Shown piece after piece: positions 1-10,280 of a stretch of 64,000 bases of DNA; positions within the stretch are counted from its first letter, which is position 1, and each line of letters opens with the position of its first letter. The notes beneath the pieces are model-generated. The model was not told the DNA's origin. It was given only the letters and a program-made list of their open reading frames with translations, and made no database searches. The DNA comes from Schlegelella aquatica (GTDB lineage: Bacteria > Pseudomonadota > Gammaproteobacteria > Burkholderiales > Burkholderiaceae_C), in NCBI RefSeq assembly GCF_026013905.1, contig NZ_CP110257.1, forward strand, positions 1,426,001 through 1,490,000. The letters run 5' to 3'. Both the position numbers and the translations under genes were made by a program.

Positions 1-3000
1 GATGCGGTCCAGCTCCTCGTCGCCCATCGCCTCCGTCACGAAGTGCCCGAACTGCTCGTACAGGTGTAGGCCGTGATGGCGCACCAGGTAGTAGAACAGG
101 CTGACGTACTTCTGGCCCTCGTCCCAGGAAAGCCGCCACAGGGAGGCGCAATGGACGGCCTTGCACGGAGCCCCTCGAACGGCGAACGCCGTGTTGAGAC
201 GATCGACGAGGCGCTGTGTCCGATCGTTCAGGCGGCGATAGATCGAGCGGCCCTCCTCCTTGAGGCGCAGCAGCGTGGCCCGTGCCGCGGCGAGCGCGAG
301 CGGGTGGCGGACGAACGTGCCCGCGAAATAGGTCACGCCCGCTTCAGGATAGGAATCGTCTGCGTACTGCCAGTACCCGCCATCCAAGGCATCGAGCCAG
401 CGGGCGGCACCAGCGATGGCAGCGAGGGGAAGGCCCCCGCCGATCACCTTCCCGTAGGTGCAGATGTCTGCCCGTACTCCATAGAACTCCTGCGCGCCAC
501 CCGGCGCGACACGGAACCCGGTGACCACCTCGTCGAAGATCAGCGCGCAGCCTGCCTCGTCTGCGATGCGGCGCAACTGGTGTACGAACTCCCGGGGTTG
601 GAGCGTGGGGCACTTGTTCTGGATCGGCTCGATCATGATCGCGGCCAGTTCGTGCCCTCGCTCGTGCAGCACCCGCAGAGATTCCTGGCTGTCGTAGTCC
701 AGCACGAGGACGTTCTCCACCGCACTGGCAAGAATGCCGGGCGCTGCGGAAACCGAGCGAAGCTGCTTGGTGCCGCGAACGATCACCTCATCGAAGATGC
801 CGTGGTAGGAGTTGGTGAAGATGGCGATCGTCTTGCGCCCCGTCACCGTGCGAGCGATACGCATGGCGCCCATCACGGCCTCCGACCCGGTGTTGCAGAA
901 CGCGACGCGTTCTGCGCCGGTCAGCTCCGAGATGAGCTGGGCGACCTCAGCCGACAACGGGTGCTGAGGGCCCACCTCGATTCCGGCCTGGAGTTGGTCG
1001 ACCATCGCCTGCACGACACCGGCCGGTTGATAGCCGAGCAGGTTGGCGCCGAAGCACGACAGCAGGTCGATGTACTCGTTGCCGTCGATGTCCCAAAGCC
1101 GCGCCCCATGCGAGCGGTTGACGACGATGGGGTAGACGAGGTCTTTCCAGAGCGGATTGAACCCCGTGACCACCCGGGGATCCGCCATGAGGCGGCGGTG
1201 CTGCTGACTGAACGCCTTCGACTTCGCGGTCCTTGCGTTGTAGCGGGCAATGAAGTCTTCGAGCCACCTGCGCTGCGCAGGCGTCTCGTCGTGCCTGGCA
1301 TCCAAGGTGATGCGGGCCGCTGCCCCGAAGGGTTTCTCGATCAGGGCCGTGATCGAAGGCTGCTCGGACGATTCCTTCGGCGCGGACACCGGCTGGGCCG
1401 AAGGGGCAGGTGCGCTGCCGGGCATCGGTGCCTGTGCACGCGGCTGCGCCAGGGCCGCCGGGGCTGGCCCCTGGCCGGCCAGCAGAGCGAGCTGCTGAGA
1501 CATCAGCTGCATCTGTTGTTGGAGGAGCTGGTGTAGGGCATCGGTGCCGATGCCTGTCGGCGCTGGCGAGGGGATGGCTGCGTTCGCGTCGCCCGCAAGG
1601 CTCGGGGTCACAGCGGCTGTGCCTCTGTGGGGTGTGGGCGAGAGCAGGGGAACGGCCTCCGGGGTGTGCGGCGTCGGGCCGGGCTGGGTGGAGGGCCCGC
1701 TCGAGACCTCGGGGGGCTGAGCCGGGCTGGGCCGGAAGCGATCGGGAGGAAGTTGTCCGTCGAGGAACACCGCCAGCTTGGGGACGGTGTCGAGGTCTTC
1801 CATCAATCGGCGCATCCGCAGCTTGACGCCGAACACTCGCTCGATCTCGAGTGTGGCCTGGGTGAGCGACAGAGAGTCGAGCCCTTGATCCAGGAAGCAG
1901 GCGGTGCCGCCCATCTCCTCGGCGGGCACGCCCGAGACGTCGCTGAGAATGCGCTGGAGTTCCTGTTCGAGAAGAGGCAATCGGGTCATGGTCGGAGTGC
2001 TGTTGGCGCAGAGGGGCCCGCGCACGGTGGTGGTCGCCTGCATCGGAGCCGCGACAGGAGCGGCTGCAGCGTGGGGTGGGCCAGCGTCGCGCGTGGTCGG
2101 ACGCTTGAACCAATGGACTTCGCCTTCGAAGGGGTAGGTCGGCAAGGGAATCCGGCGCGCCGAACGCGGCACCGGCCAGGTGATGCCGACTCCGAGGCAC
2201 CACAGCTTCGCCAGCGCTTCGAGCGCATGAACGGTGGGGGCCGTGGTGTCCTGTGCACGGCCCAGCAGGGGCACGACCTGAGGCGCCTGGCCTTCGCGGC
2301 CCCGGTGTTGGCGTACGAGTGCGGCAAGAGCCTGTCCTGCTCCGACCTCCACGAACACGCACGGACCGCGAGCGAGCTCACTCTCGACAGCCGTGCTGAA
2401 TTGGACCGGCGCGCGGACCTGCCGTGCCCAATAGTCGGGGTTCACCGCCTCTTCGTCCGTCAGCAGCGCACCGCTGGCGCAGGAGTACAGCGGCAAGCGA
2501 GGCGCGCGCAGACGACACCGACCGAGCGCCTGCCTGACCGAGTCCAACGCGCCTTCCATCGAGGCGCTGTGGAAGGCATGAGACACCTTGAGGCGCGTGG
2601 CTCCGATCCCTTGCGCTTCGAGCTGCTGCGCCAAGTCCTCGACGGCGTCCAGGCTGCCGGCCAGCACCGTCAGCGCGGGGGCGTTGCGCGCGGCGATCTC
2701 CACACTGGAAGGCAGCATCGGCGCCAGGACGTCGGCAGGGGCGCGCACGGCGAGCATCGCGCCGCGCGGCTGGCCGAACATCGCCTCGCCTCGCGCGACC
2801 ACGGCGGCCACCGCCTCCTCCGTCGTCATGACGCCGGCCACGCAGGCCGCGGCGTACTCGCCGATGCTGTGGCCGATCATGCTCTGGGGCCGCACACCGA
2901 GCGAGTCGAGCCAGCAAGCCAGAGCGTAGGACATCGCAAAAAGCGCAGGTTGCGCGTACCGCGTTTCGGCCAGCAGCTCGGAGGCGGCGGCGTCGTCAGG

Positions 3001-6000
3001 GGGGCAGTGGACCAGCCAGGGGCGCAGATCCGTTCCGAGCAAGGGTGCCGACAACTCGCAACACCGGTCGAGCGCCTCCCGGAAGGCCGGCACCTGCTCG
3101 TACAGGCCGCGCGCCATGCCGGGATGCTGCGAGCCCTGTCCGGGAAAGAGAAAGACCACCCGAGGGCTGGGCAGGCAGGCGGTCGCGCTGCTCACGCCGC
3201 GCAAGGCACGCGCCGCCCCGAGCGCGTCGCTCGCCACCACCGCAGCGCGGTGGTTCATGGGCCGGCGGCCGAGGGTGAGCGTGGCCAGCACCTCCTGCAG
3301 TGCAACGTCGGGGTGACCCTCCAGATAGGCGGCGAGATCGCGTGCCCGCCGTAGCACCGCGGAAGGGGTGCGGGCCGACAAAGGCAGGATGACCGGTTCC
3401 TGCGGTTCGCGCCGGGCCACGGTTTCGCGCAAGGGGGCTTCCTCCAGCACCGCATGGGCGTTCGTTCCGCCCACGCCGAACGAACTCACCGCCGCTCGTC
3501 GGGGCACCGCGGAGCGAGGCCAAGGTGTGTTGAGCGCGGCGACCTCGAACGGTGTGGACGAGAAATCGATCTGGGGATTGGGACGGCGGAAGTGCAGCGT
3601 GGCGGGAATGACCTCGTGGTGGAGCGACAGCGCGGTCTTGATCAGTCCGAGCACGCCGGCGGCTGCGATCGTGTGACCGAGGTTGCTCTTCAACGAGCCG
3701 ATGAGGCAGAACTGCTTGTCCGCGGTGTCGGCCCCCCAGGCCTGCGTCAGTGCGGCGATCTCGATGGGGTCGCCCAACGCGGTGCCCGTGCCGTGCGCTT
3801 CCACGTAGCCGATGCTGCGGGCGTTGAGCTGTGCGTGCTCCAGCGCCATGCGGATCGCGCCGGCCTGGCCGGTCACGCTGGGCGCGGTGAAGCTCGCCTT
3901 GTCGCCCCCGTCGTTGTTCAGACCCACCCCGCGTATGACAGCGTAGATGGTGTCGCCCTCGGCGACGGCGTCTTCGAGGCGTTTGAGCACCACCATGCCT
4001 GCGCCGCTCGCGAACACCGTGCCGCTCGCGTTCGCATCGAACGGGCGACAGTGCCCGTCGGCGGATTCCATCCCCCCTTCGACGTGGAGATAGCCCGCTT
4101 CCTGGGGCACCAGGACCGTCGCTCCGCCGGCCAGCGCGACATCGCACTGTCCGCTGGCCAGCGCGTGCCAGGCCTGCACCACCGCCACCAGGCCCGTGGA
4201 GCAGGCGGTGTGCACGCTGACGGCCGGCCCCCTCAAGTTGAGGCGGTGGGCGATGCGCGTGGCCACGTAGTCCTTCTCGCTGGCCAGCATGGAGGCGAAG
4301 TCGCCCAGCTGTTGGACGAGTTCGGGACGCTCCTCTTTGAGTGCGGCGATGTAGCTGTTGTTGGCGACGCCCGCATAGACCCCGATGCGCGCATCGCTGG
4401 CAGACGGATCGATCGAGGCGTGCTCCAGTGCAGCCCAAGCCAGTTCGAGCAGCAGCCTCTGCTGAGGGTCGAGGACGACGGCTTCTCTCGCCGACACGCC
4501 GAAGAAGGCCGCATCGAATCGACCCGGATCCTCGATCACCCCTCGGGCCGGCACGAAGTTCGTCCGCAACCGCATCTCGGCGGGAACGCTGGGGTCGATC
4601 TCCTCGGGCGCGAAGTGCCGGATTCCTTCTCTTCCTGCCAGCAGGTTCTTCCAGAACTCATCGACGTCGCAGGCACCGGCGGTGCGCACCGCCATGCCGA
4701 CGATGGCGATTCCGGCGGTGGCGCGGGGGGAGCGTCCTGTTCCGCGGTCGGTGCGGGGATCGGTCTTGTTCGACAGCAGCGACTCCAGGCCGCGCATCGT
4801 CGGTCGGTCGTATACGTCGGCGACCCCAATGCCGCGAATGCCTGCTTCTTTCAAACGCGCAACGAAGCGAAGTACGAGCAGCGACTTGGCACCGAGCTCG
4901 AAGAGATTCGCATCGGCCGGCAGTTCCTTCAGCCCGAGCAGCTCCTTCCAGACCGAGGCGGCAAAGGCGGCGGCATCCTCTGAGCTCGGCGAGGCACCAG
5001 CAGGTCCGGGCAATGGCAGCCGCTTCCTGTCGATCTTGCCGCTGGGGGTCGTCGGCAACCGGTCGAGCACGACGTACCGAACGGGCACCATGTACTCGGG
5101 CAGCCTCTCGCGCAGGAAGGAGCGCAGCTCGGAATCGATCGTGCTTGTGGGCAGATCGTGTTCAGGCTTGAGCACGAGGTGCGCGACCAGTTGCTTGCCG
5201 ACGCCCGGAATGTCGGGCGCGGTGACGACGGCCTCTCGGACGCCCGGATGCGCCATGAGCGCGATCTCGGTTTCCCCAGGCTCGATGCGGAAGCCATCGA
5301 CCTTCAGTTGCTGGTCGGTGCGGCCGAGGTAGATGTAGCCGTCCTGCCCACCCCGGCGGCGCACGAGATCCCCCGTGGTGTACCAGACGCCCGGCAATCC
5401 AGGTATGTCATCGCGGAAGCGCTCTCGGCTCAGGTCCTCGCGTCCCAGATAGCCGTGGGCCAAGGCCTGCCCGCCGAGCAGCAGTTCTCCGATGTCGTCG
5501 CCGGTCGGTGCGCCGCTGTCCGGGTCGCGCAACGCCAACCGCACATGGGGCAGCGGCGAGCCGATCGGCGGTATGTCGGGCCAGCCCTCCGCGGGCCCGC
5601 TGAGCTCGTAGGCCGTGACCACGTGGCTCTCGGTGGGGCCATAGTGGTTGTGCAGCACCGCCCCCGGCAGTTGTCGGAACAAGGCCCGGATCACCGGGGT
5701 GATCTGCAACTGTTCCCCGGCGCTGATCACGTCCTGCAGCGAAAGGGCAGGGGACGATCCTGCCTCGCCGGCGATCATCTGCAGCGCCACGTAGGGCAGG
5801 AAGATCCGCTCGACCTTGTGCCTGCGCAGTGCGGCCACGAGCAGAGCCGGATCGAGGCGATGCGTTTCCTCGAGCAGGACGAGCGTTCCTCCGCACGCGA
5901 TGGTCGAGTAGATCTCCTGAAAGTGGACGTCGAAAGACAGGGGCGCGAACTGCAGCGTGACGGCCGCTCGACCGAGACGCGGGTGCGAGGCATGCCACGC

Positions 6001-6561
6001 GATCAGGTGGCGCAGCGGCACAGACCCCATCGCGACGCCCTTGGGCTTGCCGGTGGACCCCGAGGTGAACAGCACGTAGGTGAGATCCGAGGCGGCTGCG
6101 TACGGGCGCGGGCCCGTTCCGGAAGCCGCGGGGTCGAGGCGACCGTCCTCGGGTCGCAGGCCCGCCTCGTAGAGAACATCCAACTGGGCCGGGTCGCCCA
6201 GCACGAGCCGGGGGGACGCTTCCGCGAGCATGGCTTGCAGACGCTCGGCCGGGTAGGCGAGGTCCAGCGGCACGTAGGCCGCCCCCGCGCGCACCGTCGC
6301 CAGGATGTCGACGATCGTGCGCAGGCTGCGGGTGGCCGCGATGCCCACCCGGTCGCCGGGAACGATGCCGCAAGACCGAAGCTGCGAGAGCCGCTCTTGG
6401 ACGAGCTTGGACAACTCGCGGTACGTGCATTGCTCTGTCGCCCACTGCACCGCCACCCGCTCGGGCCATTCCAGGCAAGCGCGTTCGAGCCAGTGATCGA
6501 GCAAGGGTGGAGGACGGTGGTCCTGCATGTCGCATCCTTCCTCGAGGCGTGGCTGGTTCAT
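1..6561 (-). CDS. Hybrid NRPS/PKS with aminotransferase domain (A-PCP-KS-AT-ACP-AMT), 3' part missing
   Basis: This is one open frame running off the left edge (2187 residues visible), checked in frame at every domain core. An adenylation domain (about 20-520) has 'FTSGSTGKPKGV' and 'TPSGKIDR'. Its pocket residues read D-V-Q-F-I-A-H-V-V-K, close to the known proline code. A peptidyl carrier follows (Ser561 in 'ELGAKSLL'), then a ketosynthase (617-1044; Cys787 in 'HTACSTGL', 'HGTGTALGDP'). The acyltransferase (about 1135-1480; Ser1232 in 'GHSIGEY') has 'HAFH', the malonyl signature. An ACP (Ser1563 in 'QGLDSLSL') and a Pro/Ala/Gln-rich linker lead to a class III PLP aminotransferase (from 1747; Lys2038 in 'TYGKVIGGG'). 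The layout resembles iturin/mycosubtilin and McyE-type synthases that make beta-amino units. Inferred product: a prolyl starter, one malonyl extension, then beta-amination. The start is ATG 6561 (GGAG); an in-frame ATG at 6528 has a better ribosome site (GGAAGGA). Confidence 0.93.
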   Translation of the reverse strand, partial: MNQPRLEEGCDMQDHRPPPLLDHWLERACLEWPERVAVQWATEQCTYRELSKLVQERLSQLRSCGIVPGDRVGIAATRSLRTIVDILATVRAGAAYVPLDLAYPAERLQAMLAEASPRLVLGDPAQLDVLYEAGLRPEDGRLDPAASGTGPRPYAAASDLTYVLFTSGSTGKPKGVAMGSVPLRHLIAWHASHPRLGRAAVTLQFAPLSFDVHFQEIYSTIACGGTLVLLEETHRLDPALLVAALRRHKVERIFLPYVALQMIAGEAGSSPALSLQDVISAGEQLQITPVIRALFRQLPGAVLHNHYGPTESHVVTAYELSGPAEGWPDIPPIGSPLPHVRLALRDPDSGAPTGDDIGELLLGGQALAHGYLGREDLSRERFRDDIPGLPGVWYTTGDLVRRRGGQDGYIYLGRTDQQLKVDGFRIEPGETEIALMAHPGVREAVVTAPDIPGVGKQLVAHLVLKPEHDLPTSTIDSELRSFLRERLPEYMVPVRYVVLDRLPTTPSGKIDRKRLPLPGPAGASPSSEDAAAFAASVWKELLGLKELPADANLFELGAKSLLVLRFVARLKEAGIRGIGVADVYDRPTMRGLESLLSNKTDPRTDRGTGRSPRATAGIAIVGMAVRTAGACDVDEFWKNLLAGREGIRHFAPEEIDPSVPAEMRLRTNFVPARGVIEDPGRFDAAFFGVSAREAVVLDPQQRLLLELAWAALEHASIDPSASDARIGVYAGVANNSYIAALKEERPELVQQLGDFASMLASEKDYVATRIAHRLNLRGPAVSVHTACSTGLVAVVQAWHALASGQCDVALAGGATVLVPQEAGYLHVEGGMESADGHCRPFDANASGTVFASGAGMVVLKRLEDAVAEGDTIYAVIRGVGLNNDGGDKASFTAPSVTGQAGAIRMALEHAQLNARSIGYVEAHGTGTALGDPIEIAALTQAWGADTADKQFCLIGSLKSNLGHTIAAAGVLGLIKTALSLHHEVIPATLHFRRPNPQIDFSSTPFEVAALNTPWPRSAVPRRAAVSSFGVGGTNAHAVLEEAPLRETVARREPQEPVILPLSARTPSAVLRRARDLAAYLEGHPDVALQEVLATLTLGRRPMNHRAAVVASDALGAARALRGVSSATACLPSPRVVFLFPGQGSQHPGMARGLYEQVPAFREALDRCCELSAPLLGTDLRPWLVHCPPDDAAASELLAETRYAQPALFAMSYALACWLDSLGVRPQSMIGHSIGEYAAACVAGVMTTEEAVAAVVARGEAMFGQPRGAMLAVRAPADVLAPMLPSSVEIAARNAPALTVLAGSLDAVEDLAQQLEAQGIGATRLKVSHAFHSASMEGALDSVRQALGRCRLRAPRLPLYSCASGALLTDEEAVNPDYWARQVRAPVQFSTAVESELARGPCVFVEVGAGQALAALVRQHRGREGQAPQVVPLLGRAQDTTAPTVHALEALAKLWCLGVGITWPVPRSARRIPLPTYPFEGEVHWFKRPTTRDAGPPHAAAAPVAAPMQATTTVRGPLCANSTPTMTRLPLLEQELQRILSDVSGVPAEEMGGTACFLDQGLDSLSLTQATLEIERVFGVKLRMRRLMEDLDTVPKLAVFLDGQLPPDRFRPSPAQPPEVSSGPSTQPGPTPHTPEAVPLLSPTPHRGTAAVTPSLAGDANAAIPSPAPTGIGTDALHQLLQQQMQLMSQQLALLAGQGPAPAALAQPRAQAPMPGSAPAPSAQPVSAPKESSEQPSITALIEKPFGAAARITLDARHDETPAQRRWLEDFIARYNARTAKSKAFSQQHRRLMADPRVVTGFNPLWKDLVYPIVVNRSHGARLWDIDGNEYIDLLSCFGANLLGYQPAGVVQAMVDQLQAGIEVGPQHPLSAEVAQLISELTGAERVAFCNTGSEAVMGAMRIARTVTGRKTIAIFTNSYHGIFDEVIVRGTKQLRSVSAAPGILASAVENVLVLDYDSQESLRVLHERGHELAAIMIEPIQNKCPTLQPREFVHQLRRIADEAGCALIFDEVVTGFRVAPGGAQEFYGVRADICTYGKVIGGGLPLAAIAGAARWLDALDGGYWQYADDSYPEAGVTYFAGTFVRHPLALAAARATLLRLKEEGRSIYRRLNDRTQRLVDRLNTAFAVRGAPCKAVHCASLWRLSWDEGQKYVSLFYYLVRHHGLHLYEQFGHFVTEAMGDEELDRI

Positions 6562-6753
6562 GGCGGCTCCGTTCAGGCGATGCGGCAGGCAGTGGCTCGA
6601 AACCGCTTCCGCGGCGCGGTGCCCAGCAGCGCGAGTTCGAGTGGTCGAGCGATTATGCGAGGGGGGGCATTCCTCTTGGCCCCTCAAATGAGTGAGGGGG
6701 GCGCCCCCTGAATGGGTGCTTGGAGCGACGGCCGAGGCGGGGATACTGCGTGC
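6562..6753. promoter_or_regulatory. Divergent intergenic region with a 12-bp palindrome
   Basis: This short region separates the minus-strand synthetase gene from the plus-strand SGNH hydrolase and must carry both promoters. A perfect 12-bp GC palindrome (GGGGGCGCCCCC) lies at 6697-6708. No convincing -35/-10 pair stands out. The palindrome could be an operator or a chance result of high GC. Confidence 0.3.
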
Positions 6754-7893
6754 ATGAGCGAACGGTGGACGGGCGAGCGCTTGCGCGTCGGCGGGCTCGC
6801 GGGAGCAGCGCTCCTCGCTTTGACCCTGGCCCTGTTGGCAGTGCTGGCGGTCGGCTCTGGCGGAAGCGGCGTGCGGTGGCAGCAGCCCGGAGCGGGTGCG
6901 ACACCGCTGGCTGTGCTCGGCGATTCGGACAGCCACTCTTACGGCGACAGCTTGTCGTTCCCGCGCGATTCGGACCTTCGCGGGGGCCGGTACCGCGCCT
7001 CGTCCTTGCAGTGGACCGAAGCGGTGAGCCGCCTCAGGCCCGGCCACCTCGATCTCGGCCCGTGGGGCGTGTGGGGCGTGCCGGTGCCGATCGGCCGGGC
7101 GGCGCGGTGGCTCGGCCTCAGTCTGCGACAGCCGCGCAAGGAAGACTACCTGCACAACTTCGCCTATGCCGGCGCCGGCTGCGACGACCTCACGCGAGGG
7201 GGAGGTCGGCAGACCCAGCACCTTCTTGATCTGCTCGCCTCCGACCGAGAGCGCTGGTCGCGCGGCGTCGTCGTGGTTCGCATCGGCATCAATGACCTCG
7301 GCACGCGCGAGGCCCTCGATGCCTTTGCCAGCGATCCCGTCGGCTCGCGTTCTGACGCGGTGGTCGAGGCGTGCTTGCGGCACATCGAGGAGGCGGTGGG
7401 CCTCGTGCGGTCCCGGCACCCGCAGGTTCGGTTGGTCCTGGTGGGGATTTTCAACAACGCGCACTGGGCCCGCTTCTCCGATCGCTGGCAGGACCCGGTG
7501 GCTCAAGAGCGGATCGCCCGGGCCCTCGACCGTTTCGACCACGGCCTGCAGGCGATGACGCTTCGTTTCGGCCCCGCGGTGTTCTTCGACGAGCGCTCCT
7601 GGTTCGCGGCGCGCTGGGGTGGGCGCGACGGTGCCGGAGCGCCCGCCTACCGGGCGGTGGCGCTGGGACCTGGGCTGCGTGTGGCGAACACCTCCGGCGA
7701 CGAGCCGTCCAACGCGGTGCTGGCCGACGGACACGCGGGTACGGCGTGGAACGCGATGTGGGCCGCTTCGCTGATCGATCTGTTGAACGGCACGTGGCAG
7801 CTTCGCGTTCCCGCGGTGCCACCTGACGAGATCGTGCGGCTCGTGCGCGCGGTCACATCCGGTGAGCCTCGGGGAGCCGGGCAGAACCCGTGA
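6754..7893 (+). CDS. Membrane-anchored SGNH/GDSL-family hydrolase
   Basis: A 379-residue protein with one hydrophobic segment (about residues 14-36), so it is probably a signal anchor facing the periplasm. The SGNH blocks are visible: block I 'VLGDSDSHSYGD' with the likely nucleophilic serine, block III 'RIGINDLG', and a C-terminal Asp-X-His ('LADGHAG'). These proteins are usually esterases or O-acetyl esterases acting on polysaccharides or lipids. The substrate cannot be read from sequence. The gene precedes two nucleotide-sugar genes, which makes a role in polysaccharide decoration plausible. An earlier in-frame ATG at 6712 would add 14 residues. The later start gives a normal n-region of a signal anchor; neither has a strong ribosome site. 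Confidence 0.8.
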   Translation: MSERWTGERLRVGGLAGAALLALTLALLAVLAVGSGGSGVRWQQPGAGATPLAVLGDSDSHSYGDSLSFPRDSDLRGGRYRASSLQWTEAVSRLRPGHLDLGPWGVWGVPVPIGRAARWLGLSLRQPRKEDYLHNFAYAGAGCDDLTRGGGRQTQHLLDLLASDRERWSRGVVVVRIGINDLGTREALDAFASDPVGSRSDAVVEACLRHIEEAVGLVRSRHPQVRLVLVGIFNNAHWARFSDRWQDPVAQERIARALDRFDHGLQAMTLRFGPAVFFDERSWFAARWGGRDGAGAPAYRAVALGPGLRVANTSGDEPSNAVLADGHAGTAWNAMWAASLIDLLNGTWQLRVPAVPPDEIVRLVRAVTSGEPRGAGQNP

Positions 7894-7968
7894 ATCGGGG
7901 ATTGGCGTCGCTCCATCGCTCTGTGACCATGCCCTCCGATGCGGTCGGACCGCGGCCATGGAGAAGCG

Positions 7969-9245
<1,277 letters not shown>

Positions 9246-9249
<4 letters not shown>

Positions 9250-10280
9250 GCCTGGACGAAATCACCGTGGTGCTGAGGGTCCGCCCCCGTCGATGGCTGC
9301 TGACGGGAAGCGCGGGCTTCATCGGGTCGCACCTGCTGGAGGTCTTGCTGCGTCACGGTCAGACCGTGACCAGCCTCGACAACTTCTCCACCGGCCACCG
9401 GGCCAATCTGGAGGAAGTGCGCGAGGCGGTCGGTGAAGAAGCATGGAGCCGCCACACCTTCATCGAAGGCGACATCGCCGACCCCGAGGTGTGCCGGCAC
9501 GCCTGCGAAGGGGCCTCGATCGTGCTCCATCAGGCGGCGCTCGGCTCGGTGCCGCGCTCGATCAAGGACCCCCTGGCCACGCATCGTTCCAATGCCACGG
9601 GTTTCGTGAATCTGCTGGCAGCCGCCTGCGAGGCGAACGTCCGGCGCTTCGTCTATGCCGCCTCCAGTTCGACCTACGGCGACTCCCTCACGCTGCCCAA
9701 GGTGGAGGACAGGATCGGCCGCCCGCTGTCGCCCTATGCGGTGACCAAGTACCTCAACGAGCTCTACGCCGAGGTGTTCTCGCGCTGCTATGGCATCGAG
9801 ACGATCGGGCTGCGGTACTTCAACGTCTTCGGCCCGCGGCAGGACCCGAACGGCGCCTACGCGGCCGTGATCCCCCGCTGGGTGGCGGAGATGCTGTCGA
9901 ACAAGCGCAGCGTCATCAATGGCGACGGCGAGACCTCGCGGGACTTCTGCTTCGTCGCCAACGCCGTGCAGGCGAACCTGCGCGCCGCGCTGACCGACAA
10001 CCCGCAGGCCGTCAATCAGGTCTACAACGTCGCTGTCGGCGAGCGGACGACGCTCAACCAGTTGCACGAGTTGATCGCCGGGGCCCTGGGAGGCGTTCGC
10101 TCCGACCTTCGCATACGCCCGCCCGAGTACGCCGACTTCCGCCCGGGCGACGTGCGCCATTCGCTGGCCGACATCGGCAAGGCCCGTCGCCTGCTCGGCT
10201 ATGCACCCACGCACACCGTTCAACAGGGCTTGCGTGAGGCGATCGGCTGGTACGTCTCCAAAGCCGCAGTGCCGGCATAG
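9246..10280 (+). CDS. tviC: UDP-N-acetylhexosamine(uronate) 4-epimerase, TviC/WbpP-like
   Basis: A 344-residue short-chain dehydrogenase/reductase-type NDP-sugar epimerase. The N-terminus has the glycine motif '[12 protein letters not shown]' after a short extension typical of WbpP/TviC. The catalytic Ser/Tyr/Lys set appears as 'AASSSTYGD' and '[11 protein letters not shown]'. The family interconverts UDP-GlcNAc and UDP-GalNAc, or the corresponding uronic acids. ATG 9246 overlaps the stop of the dehydrogenase gene, which implies translational coupling. The length matches WbpP (about 341). No glycosyltransferase or polymerase genes are next to it in this window, so the acceptor glycan is unknown. 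Confidence 0.92.

What the first reader, a model, noticed from the sequence alone, without database searches (positions are those of the whole stretch)
1..6561. Hybrid NRPS/PKS predicted to build a beta-amino acid from proline and malonate
Seen: A-PCP-KS-AT-ACP-class III aminotransferase in one frame, all active-site residues intact. Known: proline A domains such as GrsB use a D-V-Q-x-I-A-H-V code, malonyl AT domains use HAFH, and PKS-fused aminotransferases make beta-amino units (mycosubtilin, microcystin). Inferred: prolyl starter, one malonyl extension and amination would give a pyrrolidinyl beta-amino acyl unit. Iturin-type synthases start with a fatty acid and McyE with an aryl unit; I know of no described system with a proline-like loading A domain in exactly this layout.
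Basis: partly seen in the sequence, partly recalled or inferred. Interest (0 to 1): 0.75.

Follow-up and report, generated by a model that had tools for sequence, protein, structure and literature searches.

The report
Peptide-polyketide synthase inside a slime-polysaccharide locus
A bacterial assembly-line enzyme that probably turns proline, malonate and an amine into an unusual beta-amino acid followed by two glycines turns out to be a widespread family, and here it sits in the gene cluster for the cell's slime polysaccharide next to two enzymes of unknown function that may unload its product.

Summary
On the minus strand from 6561, A-PCP-KS-AT-ACP-aminotransferase lie in one frame with intact active-site motifs. 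The gene runs on past the window to 4,376 aa, adding C-A-PCP-C-A-PCP. The loading A-domain pocket matches the GrsB and TycB proline domains best, the aminotransferase matches MycA best, the AT looks malonyl-specific and both later A domains look glycine-specific. Prolyl-beta-amino-Gly-Gly is a fair prediction.

The layout is not unique: it is in print (Milano 2013), and 67 of the 80 related loci kept have it.

What is new is the setting. In this Caldimonas genome the gene closes an XrtA/PEP-CTERM-type exopolysaccharide locus that holds no exosortase. A polysaccharide-export gene lies within 65 kb in 11 of 14 genomes (about 1 expected). Non-Pseudomonadota relatives mostly end in a thioesterase-like tail. 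Most Pseudomonadota copies lack one and are followed by two hydrolases, one with Cys as nucleophile, one with none. The exosortase-A-associated hydrolases show the same pattern, and in Luteimonas the second is fused to the synthetase. I propose that this pair unloads the peptide, perhaps onto the polysaccharide. Neither product nor transfer is shown.

The parts
1..6561 (-). gene A, N-terminal half: hybrid NRPS/PKS (continues left of the window to G000 1,419,431; 4,376 aa in all)
   Evidence: open frame; Pfam
5002..6504 (-). loading adenylation domain, code DVQ-F-I-A-H-V-V (proline-like)
4777..4995 (-). peptidyl carrier domain (FELGAKSL)
3412..4716 (-). ketosynthase, TACSTG / EAHGTG / NLGH
2242..3171 (-). 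acyltransferase, GHSIGE and HAFH (malonyl type, motif meaning recalled)
1756..1983 (-). acyl carrier domain (DQGLDSL)
1..1326 (-). class III aminotransferase domain, closest solved relative MycA; its last residues lie left of the window
6712..7893 (+). GDSL/SGNH hydrolase, divergent neighbour; homologues near this gene family in G001, G041, G098, L058, L062, L066, L075
   Evidence: Pfam 32.1 bits, just under its cut-off 32.9
7939..9249 (+). nucleotide sugar dehydrogenase, TviB-like (UDP-GlcNAc C6 dehydrogenase)
   Evidence: over the NDP-sugDHase cut-off, under the TviB cut-off; linkage
9246..10280 (+). NAD-dependent epimerase, TviC-like
   Evidence: under the TviC cut-off; start; linkage

Best explanation
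Gene A is a modular synthetase. Its first A domain loads proline onto the PCP. The KS-AT-ACP module adds one malonyl unit. The in-line aminotransferase turns the beta-ketone into a beta-amine, giving a 3-amino-3-(pyrrolidin-2-yl)propanoyl unit. Two further modules add two glycines. The synthetase has no thioesterase. The finished chain is taken off by the two alpha/beta hydrolases encoded nearby (here after gene B; in most relatives directly after gene A): a Cys-nucleophile enzyme (hydrolase 1-like) and a partner without a nucleophile (hydrolase 2-like). The genes belong to an XrtA/PEP-CTERM-type exopolysaccharide locus, so the most likely use is to make a small amine-rich peptidyl group for that polysaccharide, or for its carrier lipid or an attached protein, rather than a free antibiotic. 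Shown by sequence: domain order, motifs, conservation, linkage, Cys versus no-nucleophile pattern, one fusion. Inferred from codes and relatives: proline (about 0.8), malonate and amination (about 0.9), glycines (about 0.8). Inferred from context: off-loading by the hydrolase pair (about 0.7; raised from 0.6 after the recount), attachment to the polysaccharide (about 0.35).
For: Domains and motifs. Proline pocket. MycA-like aminotransferase. Glycine-type DILQLGM codes in the next two modules: (meaning recalled). Starter DVQ-type in 52 of 64 readable starters; of 51 of those with a readable next A domain, 39 have DILQ there. Locus: TIGR03013, 03027, 03007, 03018, 03016 and 03015 all over curated cut-offs at 1,380.6-1,389.2 kb, then glycosyltransferase-like, asparagine-synthase-like and Wzy-like genes. 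Linkage: Poly_export gene within 65 kb of the aminotransferase in 11 of 14 genomes, expected 1.0, P about 6e-11. Lysobacter L063 and Aquimonas L060 have XrtA-type EPS genes within a few kb. Hydrolases: of 31 Pseudomonadota loci, 22 have a hydrolase 1-like and 20 a separate hydrolase 2-like gene, none of 49 others. In the two of the 22 without a separate hydrolase 2-like gene, both Luteimonas (L090, L108), a 286-aa tail follows the last carrier; the L090 tail is hydrolase 2-like (31% identity, 6e-23; L108 tail not compared). Two Pseudomonadota loci without the pair (L059, L081) have a cis thioesterase instead. Among the other 49 loci, 43 of 44 C-A-PCP proteins have a 244-325 aa tail, 42 with a serine motif; Pfam names it thioesterase in the two scanned. 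Cys at the elbow in 35 of 35 hydrolase 1-like rows, no Ser or Cys at that column in 32 of 32 hydrolase 2-like rows, some rows being the same genome twice. Canonical hydr1_PEP: Cys in all 20 loci fetched of 32; hydr2_PEP: Arg in all 20 fetched of 32. Models place Cys117 of hydrolase 1 and Arg124 of hydrolase 2 between a strand and a helix.
Against: No product or enzyme activity is known. Position next to polysaccharide genes does not prove a joint product; the linkage test treats related genomes as independent and the 65 kb limit was chosen after seeing the distances (G007 lies at 62.9 kb). In G098 and G079 the export gene is on another contig; in G041 the nearest is 666 kb away, but the cluster lies at a contig end. 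Seven of 31 Pseudomonadota loci show neither pair nor tail (L060, L065, L067, L070, L071, L072, L077; L065, L067 and L072 are short contigs). The hydrolases score below the NCBIfam cut-offs and are only about 20% identical to the canonical ones. With the whole A domain as query, linear gramicidin synthase A ranks first by total score over two domains, not a proline domain; the best single-stretch match is Tyrocidine synthase 2. In G000 and G001 a second synthetase with an acyl-ligase-like start follows, whose place is unknown. Exosortase presence is only weakly associated (11 of 15 against 60 of 134, P 0.054).
Confidence: 0.45

Rival explanations
1. An ordinary secreted small molecule (signal, siderophore or antibiotic). 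The synthetase lies beside the polysaccharide locus only because both are carried in one genomic island, and the hydrolases simply release or proof-read the chain.
For: Bacteroidota relatives have a cis thioesterase-like tail and often a PPTase gene and look like a stand-alone small-molecule cassette. Most characterised NRPS/PKS products are free (recalled).
Against: Linkage to polysaccharide genes persists in Burkholderiales and Lysobacterales. In L104 an acyltransferase-3 and a glycosyltransferase-like gene precede it on the same strand. No transporter was noted, but none was searched for.
Confidence: 0.35
2. In this species genes A and B together make a lipopeptide: gene B (fatty-acyl-ligase-like domain-ACP-C-A-PCP-C-A-PCP) supplies an acyl dipeptide that is joined to gene A's chain, giving a surfactant-like product.
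For: Gene B follows directly, same strand; the last A-PCP of both genes share a 1,647 bp block at 99.7% identity.
Against: In the stretches fetched, gene B is seen only in G000 and G001 of 8 close genomes, so it is not part of the conserved core. Gene A begins with an A domain and has no C domain to accept gene B's chain.
Confidence: 0.15
3. The starter is not proline but another amino or imino acid, so the unit is a different beta-amino acid.
For: Codes are predictions. Relatives switch starter: G008 reads DILQ (glycine-like), G040, G057, G098 and G024 read DALW (valine-like, recalled). Only 21 of the 52 DVQ-type codes keep A-H-V.
Against: The pocket segment matches the two proline domains far better than any other solved A domain.
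Confidence: 0.15

Closest known systems
MycA / iturin-type synthases (mycosubtilin)
   Same: KS-AT-ACP-aminotransferase-C-A-PCP order (recalled for MycA); its aminotransferase is this domain's closest solved relative
   Different: MycA starts with a fatty-acyl ligase (recalled); here the starter is an amino acid A domain, there is no cis thioesterase, and the setting is a polysaccharide locus
A-CP-KS-AT-CP-PLP1 proteins listed by Milano et al. 2013 (Pedobacter heparinus C6XWU5; Thiorhodococcus drewsii G2E5C9)
   Same: same domain layout at the start; predicted Nrp-Mal-Gly-Pk for Pedobacter
   Different: the passages and section read give no proline assignment and no polysaccharide or hydrolase context; the two Pedobacter relatives here have a thioesterase-like tail
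XrtA/PEP-CTERM exopolysaccharide loci (ligase_PEP_1, ACP, hydr2, hydr1)
   Same: same EPS genes; hydrolase pair in the same order with the same Cys / no-nucleophile pattern
   Different: here the NRPS/PKS stands where ligase and ACP stand at the one canonical locus annotated; no exosortase in the locus; hydrolases below family cut-offs
Detoxin/rimosamide/chitinimide synthases
   Same: hybrid NRPS/PKS thought to extend a proline-like unit with malonate (recalled; PMC8302735 passages name DetG, RmoI, ChmD and a KR domain)
   Different: ketoreductase and beta-hydroxyl there, aminotransferase and beta-amine here

Membership tests
NRPS/PKS hybrids with in-line class III aminotransferase (MycA type) | KS-AT-ACP followed by Aminotran_3 then C-A-PCP in one protein | tested here: met
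NRPS/PKS hybrids with in-line class III aminotransferase (MycA type) | fatty-acyl ligase start (iturin subtype) | tested here: not met
   gene A starts with an amino acid A domain; the ligase-like domain is on separate gene B
NRPS/PKS hybrids with in-line class III aminotransferase (MycA type) | amino transfer to a carrier-bound beta-ketone | not testable with these tools
   needs purified enzyme
A-PCP-KS-AT-ACP-AMT layout of Milano 2013 | domain layout | tested here: met
XrtA/PEP-CTERM exopolysaccharide locus | EPS core genes over family cut-offs | tested here: met
   six families over cut-off
XrtA/PEP-CTERM exopolysaccharide locus | exosortase in the locus | tested here: not met
   the only PF09721 match in G000 is at 758 kb
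hydr1_PEP / hydr2_PEP (TIGR03100 / TIGR03101) | score over curated cut-off | tested here: not met
   72.0 of 168.45 and 96.0 of 202.75 bits
hydr1_PEP / hydr2_PEP (TIGR03100 / TIGR03101) | paired order, Cys elbow in 1, no nucleophile in 2 (pattern found here, not a published definition) | tested here: met
proline-activating A domain | pocket code like GrsB/TycB proline | tested here: met
   activity not tested

The most novel reading that the evidence does not exclude
A new kind of polysaccharide decoration: an NRPS/PKS assembly line builds a prolyl-derived beta-amino-Gly-Gly group, and a Cys acyltransferase with a catalytically dead partner moves it from the carrier protein to the exopolysaccharide. 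The same pair would do the same job in ordinary XrtA loci with the group made by ligase_PEP_1 and its ACP, which would give a function to hydr1_PEP and hydr2_PEP.
Probability: 0.3. Interest if true: 0.85.

Novelty: new variant of a known kind. Interest (0 to 1): 0.62.

Why it matters
If right, secondary-metabolite assembly lines can serve cell-envelope polysaccharide chemistry. It would also give a testable role to two protein families that NCBIfam lists as hypothetical equivalogs named only 'hydrolase 1/2, exosortase A system-associated'. The beta-amino acid unit itself would be an unusual building block. A laboratory strain with recombineering, Schlegelella brevitalea DSM 7029, carries the gene set (G007: its length equals the genome size in PMC8302735, and NRPS/PKS domains lie at that paper's glidobactin coordinates), so the question can be tested directly.

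Tried and rejected
Exosortase co-occurrence as an explanation: weak (11 of 15 aminotransferase genomes against 60 of 134 others, P 0.054), though within the genus 7 of 7 carriers have an exosortase and 2 of 2 non-carriers lack one. Mutual exclusion with canonical hydrolase pairs: 1 of 15 against 31 of 134, P 0.19, not significant. Sigma-54-type sites: 72 matches in the window, 76.9 expected, nothing. Literature: ten searches (one search found no paper). None of the titles and abstract openings listed describes an NRPS/PKS in an exopolysaccharide locus or a pyrrolidinyl beta-amino acid from such a synthase; I opened only the papers named in the full report, and the library lacks most subscription papers. 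Fold search of the hydrolase models was not available. My first count treated all Pseudomonadota copies as lacking a thioesterase; the recount found one at L059 and at L081 and the hydrolase 2-like tail at L090, and the text was changed.
Full report
What is there. The window is bases 1,426,001-1,490,000 of a single-contig 3,348,564 bp genome. The tool places it in one genus with G003, which has the contig length of Caldimonas mangrovi, and with G007, whose 6,476,147 bp is the size given for Schlegelella brevitalea DSM 7029 (PMC8302735, passages). Active-site motifs are present; the first C domain reads SHLILDG, with the second His of the motif kept. No thioesterase family was found in gene A. 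Gene B follows on the same strand (open frame 1,419,252-1,410,715): an acyl-ligase-like domain (AMP-binding plus PF23024; the name fatty-acyl-AMP ligase is recalled), ACP, C-A-PCP-C-A-PCP. The last A-PCP of A and B share 1,647 bp at 99.7% identity, a recent copy or conversion.

Substrates. The loading A domain reads D-V-Q-F-I-A-H-V-V at the pocket columns (which residue stands for position 278 depends on the alignment). Its pocket segment against all solved chains ranks Gramicidin S synthase 2 (3.9e-21) and Tyrocidine synthase 2 (1e-20) first, next 3e-13; the alignments show the same D-V-Q, I-x-A, H and V-V residues. That those two domains take proline is recalled. With the whole domain, linear gramicidin synthase A ranks first on two summed domains and Tyrocidine synthase 2 is the best single stretch. 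The aminotransferase ranks two MycA entries first (7e-117, 2.3e-116), then glutamate-1-semialdehyde aminomutase (3.7e-52). The two later A domains of gene A read DILQLGM, a glycine-type code (recalled). Predicted chain: prolyl, malonyl, amine, Gly, Gly.

How common it is. The aminotransferase search of 149 genomes (own included) gave 15 with a match at E below 1e-100. Of those 80, 73 have a KS and 67 have A, KS and AT domains upstream of it; the 7 without KS are L067, L083, L084, L110, L111, L116, L121. The starter code was read in 64: 52 DVQ-type, of which 21 strictly DVQ-x-x-AHV; 12 read differently and 16 loci gave no reading. The next A domain was readable in 71, DILQ in 51. A tree of 95 aminotransferase rows puts the Caldimonas sequences in a fully supported group of Pseudomonadota, mostly Burkholderiales and Lysobacterales (100/100), apart from a Bacteroidota group (100/98). 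Milano et al. 2013 (PMC3870968; outline, passages and section 8 seen) already list the layout for Pedobacter heparinus and, with more domains, Thiorhodococcus. So the layout is not new; I saw no proline assignment there.

The setting. Left of gene B lie two hydrolases, an unassigned gene and an ElyC-like (DUF218) gene, then an exopolysaccharide locus. EpsB_2, export protein, chain-length protein, kinase, outer-membrane protein and ATPase of the XrtA/PEP-CTERM type are all over curated cut-offs. Glycosyltransferases and asparagine-synthase-type amidotransferases related to XrtA-system families follow, below those families' cut-offs, and a Wzy_C protein. The only exosortase match of the genome is at 758 kb. 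On the other side, in the window, are a GDSL-like hydrolase and TviB- and TviC-like sugar-nucleotide genes. TviB-like genes also lie near the synthetase in G001, G003 (= L051), G008, L053, L059, L060, L063, L064 and L074, weakly matching ones in L090 and L108. In Lysobacter L063 and Aquimonas L060 EpsB_2 is over cut-off close by, in L063 also the export protein. Distance from aminotransferase to the nearest polysaccharide-export gene: under 65 kb in 11 of 14 genomes (G110 not included), 1.0 expected, P about 6e-11. That test ignores kinship, uses rounded genome sizes for most, and its limit was set after looking.

Off-loading. Hydrolase 1-like genes lie in the fetched stretches of 12 of the 15 genomes with the aminotransferase (not G057, G098, G110). 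At the 31 Pseudomonadota loci among the named 80, a hydrolase 1-like gene was found in 22 and a separate hydrolase 2-like gene in 20 of these; none in the other 49 loci. In the remaining two of the 22, Luteimonas L090 and L108, a 286-aa tail follows the last carrier domain, and that of L090 is hydrolase 2-like (31% identity over 278 aa, 6e-23; L108 has the same tail length but was not compared). Two loci without the pair, L059 and L081, end in a Pfam thioesterase. Seven show neither: L060, L065, L067, L070, L071, L072, L077, three of them on short contigs. In the other 49 loci, 43 of 44 C-A-PCP proteins on the + strand carry a further 244-325 aa, 42 of the 43 with a serine motif such as GYSFG; Pfam names it thioesterase in the two scanned. 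So thioesterase and hydrolase pair mostly replace each other. Hydrolase 1-like rows have Cys at the nucleophile elbow in 35 of 35, hydrolase 2-like rows no Ser or Cys at that column in 32 of 32, a few rows being the same genome twice. Canonical hydr1_PEP: Cys in 19 of 20 fetched by alignment, and L140, a cut locus that failed to align, shows it too; hydr2_PEP: Arg in 20 of 20; in each case 20 of 32 genomes were fetched. Canonical pairs occur in the same 32 of 149 relatives, hydr1 over cut-off in 32 and hydr2 in 31. At the one canonical locus annotated (L173) they follow a divergent ligase_PEP_1 and an 83-aa ORF that reads like a carrier protein. AlphaFold models of one hydrolase of each kind, from L052, are confident (pLDDT 88.2 and 90.5); Cys117 lies between strand 110-116 and helix 118-129. 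Cys in such enzymes favours acyl transfer over hydrolysis (recalled), which is why I read the pair as a transfer device. This is inference.

Variation. In G003, G004 and G007 the last A domain looks degenerate; in G041 one module lacks an A domain. G008 starts with part of a C domain and a glycine-like A domain. A PPTase gene follows the pair in G007 and lies in the G041 cluster; PPTase-like genes were found at 38 of 80 named loci.

Literature. Haft 2006 (PMC1569441) does not contain the words hydrolase, ligase, acyl carrier, nonribosomal or glycine (word search only). PMC9850573 passages tie a large polysaccharide locus and PEP-CTERM genes to floc formation. A title in the reference list of PMC11511702 (Craig 2011) reports N-acyl amino acid synthases linked to the PEP-CTERM/exosortase system; that paper was not held. 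The S. brevitalea homologue lies at 3.726-3.739 Mb, outside the cluster deletions of route 1 in Table 1 of PMC8302735 (passages); that paper's glidobactin coordinates do hold NRPS/PKS domains in G007, so coordinates agree. Other passages seen: PMC10587159.

Verdict. The finding is real, its chemistry prediction is sound as far as sequence goes, and its novelty claim for the layout fails. The interest lies in the polysaccharide setting and the paired hydrolases.

Noticed in passing
G000 1,410,818-1,412,464 and 1,419,564-1,421,210 (left of the window): 1,647 bp block of 99.7% identity between the last A-PCP of genes B and A.
   Followed up: partly
G000 1,380,623-1,434,241: XrtA-type exopolysaccharide locus without an exosortase; the exosortase match is at 758 kb.
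   Followed up: partly
window 6712-7893: GDSL-like hydrolase that recurs near this synthetase family in other genera.
   Followed up: partly
L104 1385-4690: In Mucilaginibacter an acyltransferase-3 gene, a glycosyltransferase-like gene (below cut-off) and a further ORF that looks like one (not scanned) precede the synthetase on the same strand.
   Followed up: partly
L063 17861-18766; similar ORFs at L068-L072 and others: Cupin/JmjC-type oxygenase near the synthetase; only the L063 copy was scanned.
   Followed up: no
L081 14740-15621: The cis thioesterase has GLCAG, a Cys, where a Ser is usual.
   Followed up: no
G001 1,542,667-1,555,955; G002 C6 15,861-28,977: Gene A homologues split over two frames; could be real or assembly errors.
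   Followed up: no
L070 14882-19993, L071 14781-19901: Rhodanobacter loci have an extra synthetase whose first A domain reads DSRFMGEVV.
   Followed up: no
L063 and L074: The synthetase begins with a carrier domain and no starter A domain; TviB- and TviC-like genes sit upstream.
   Followed up: no
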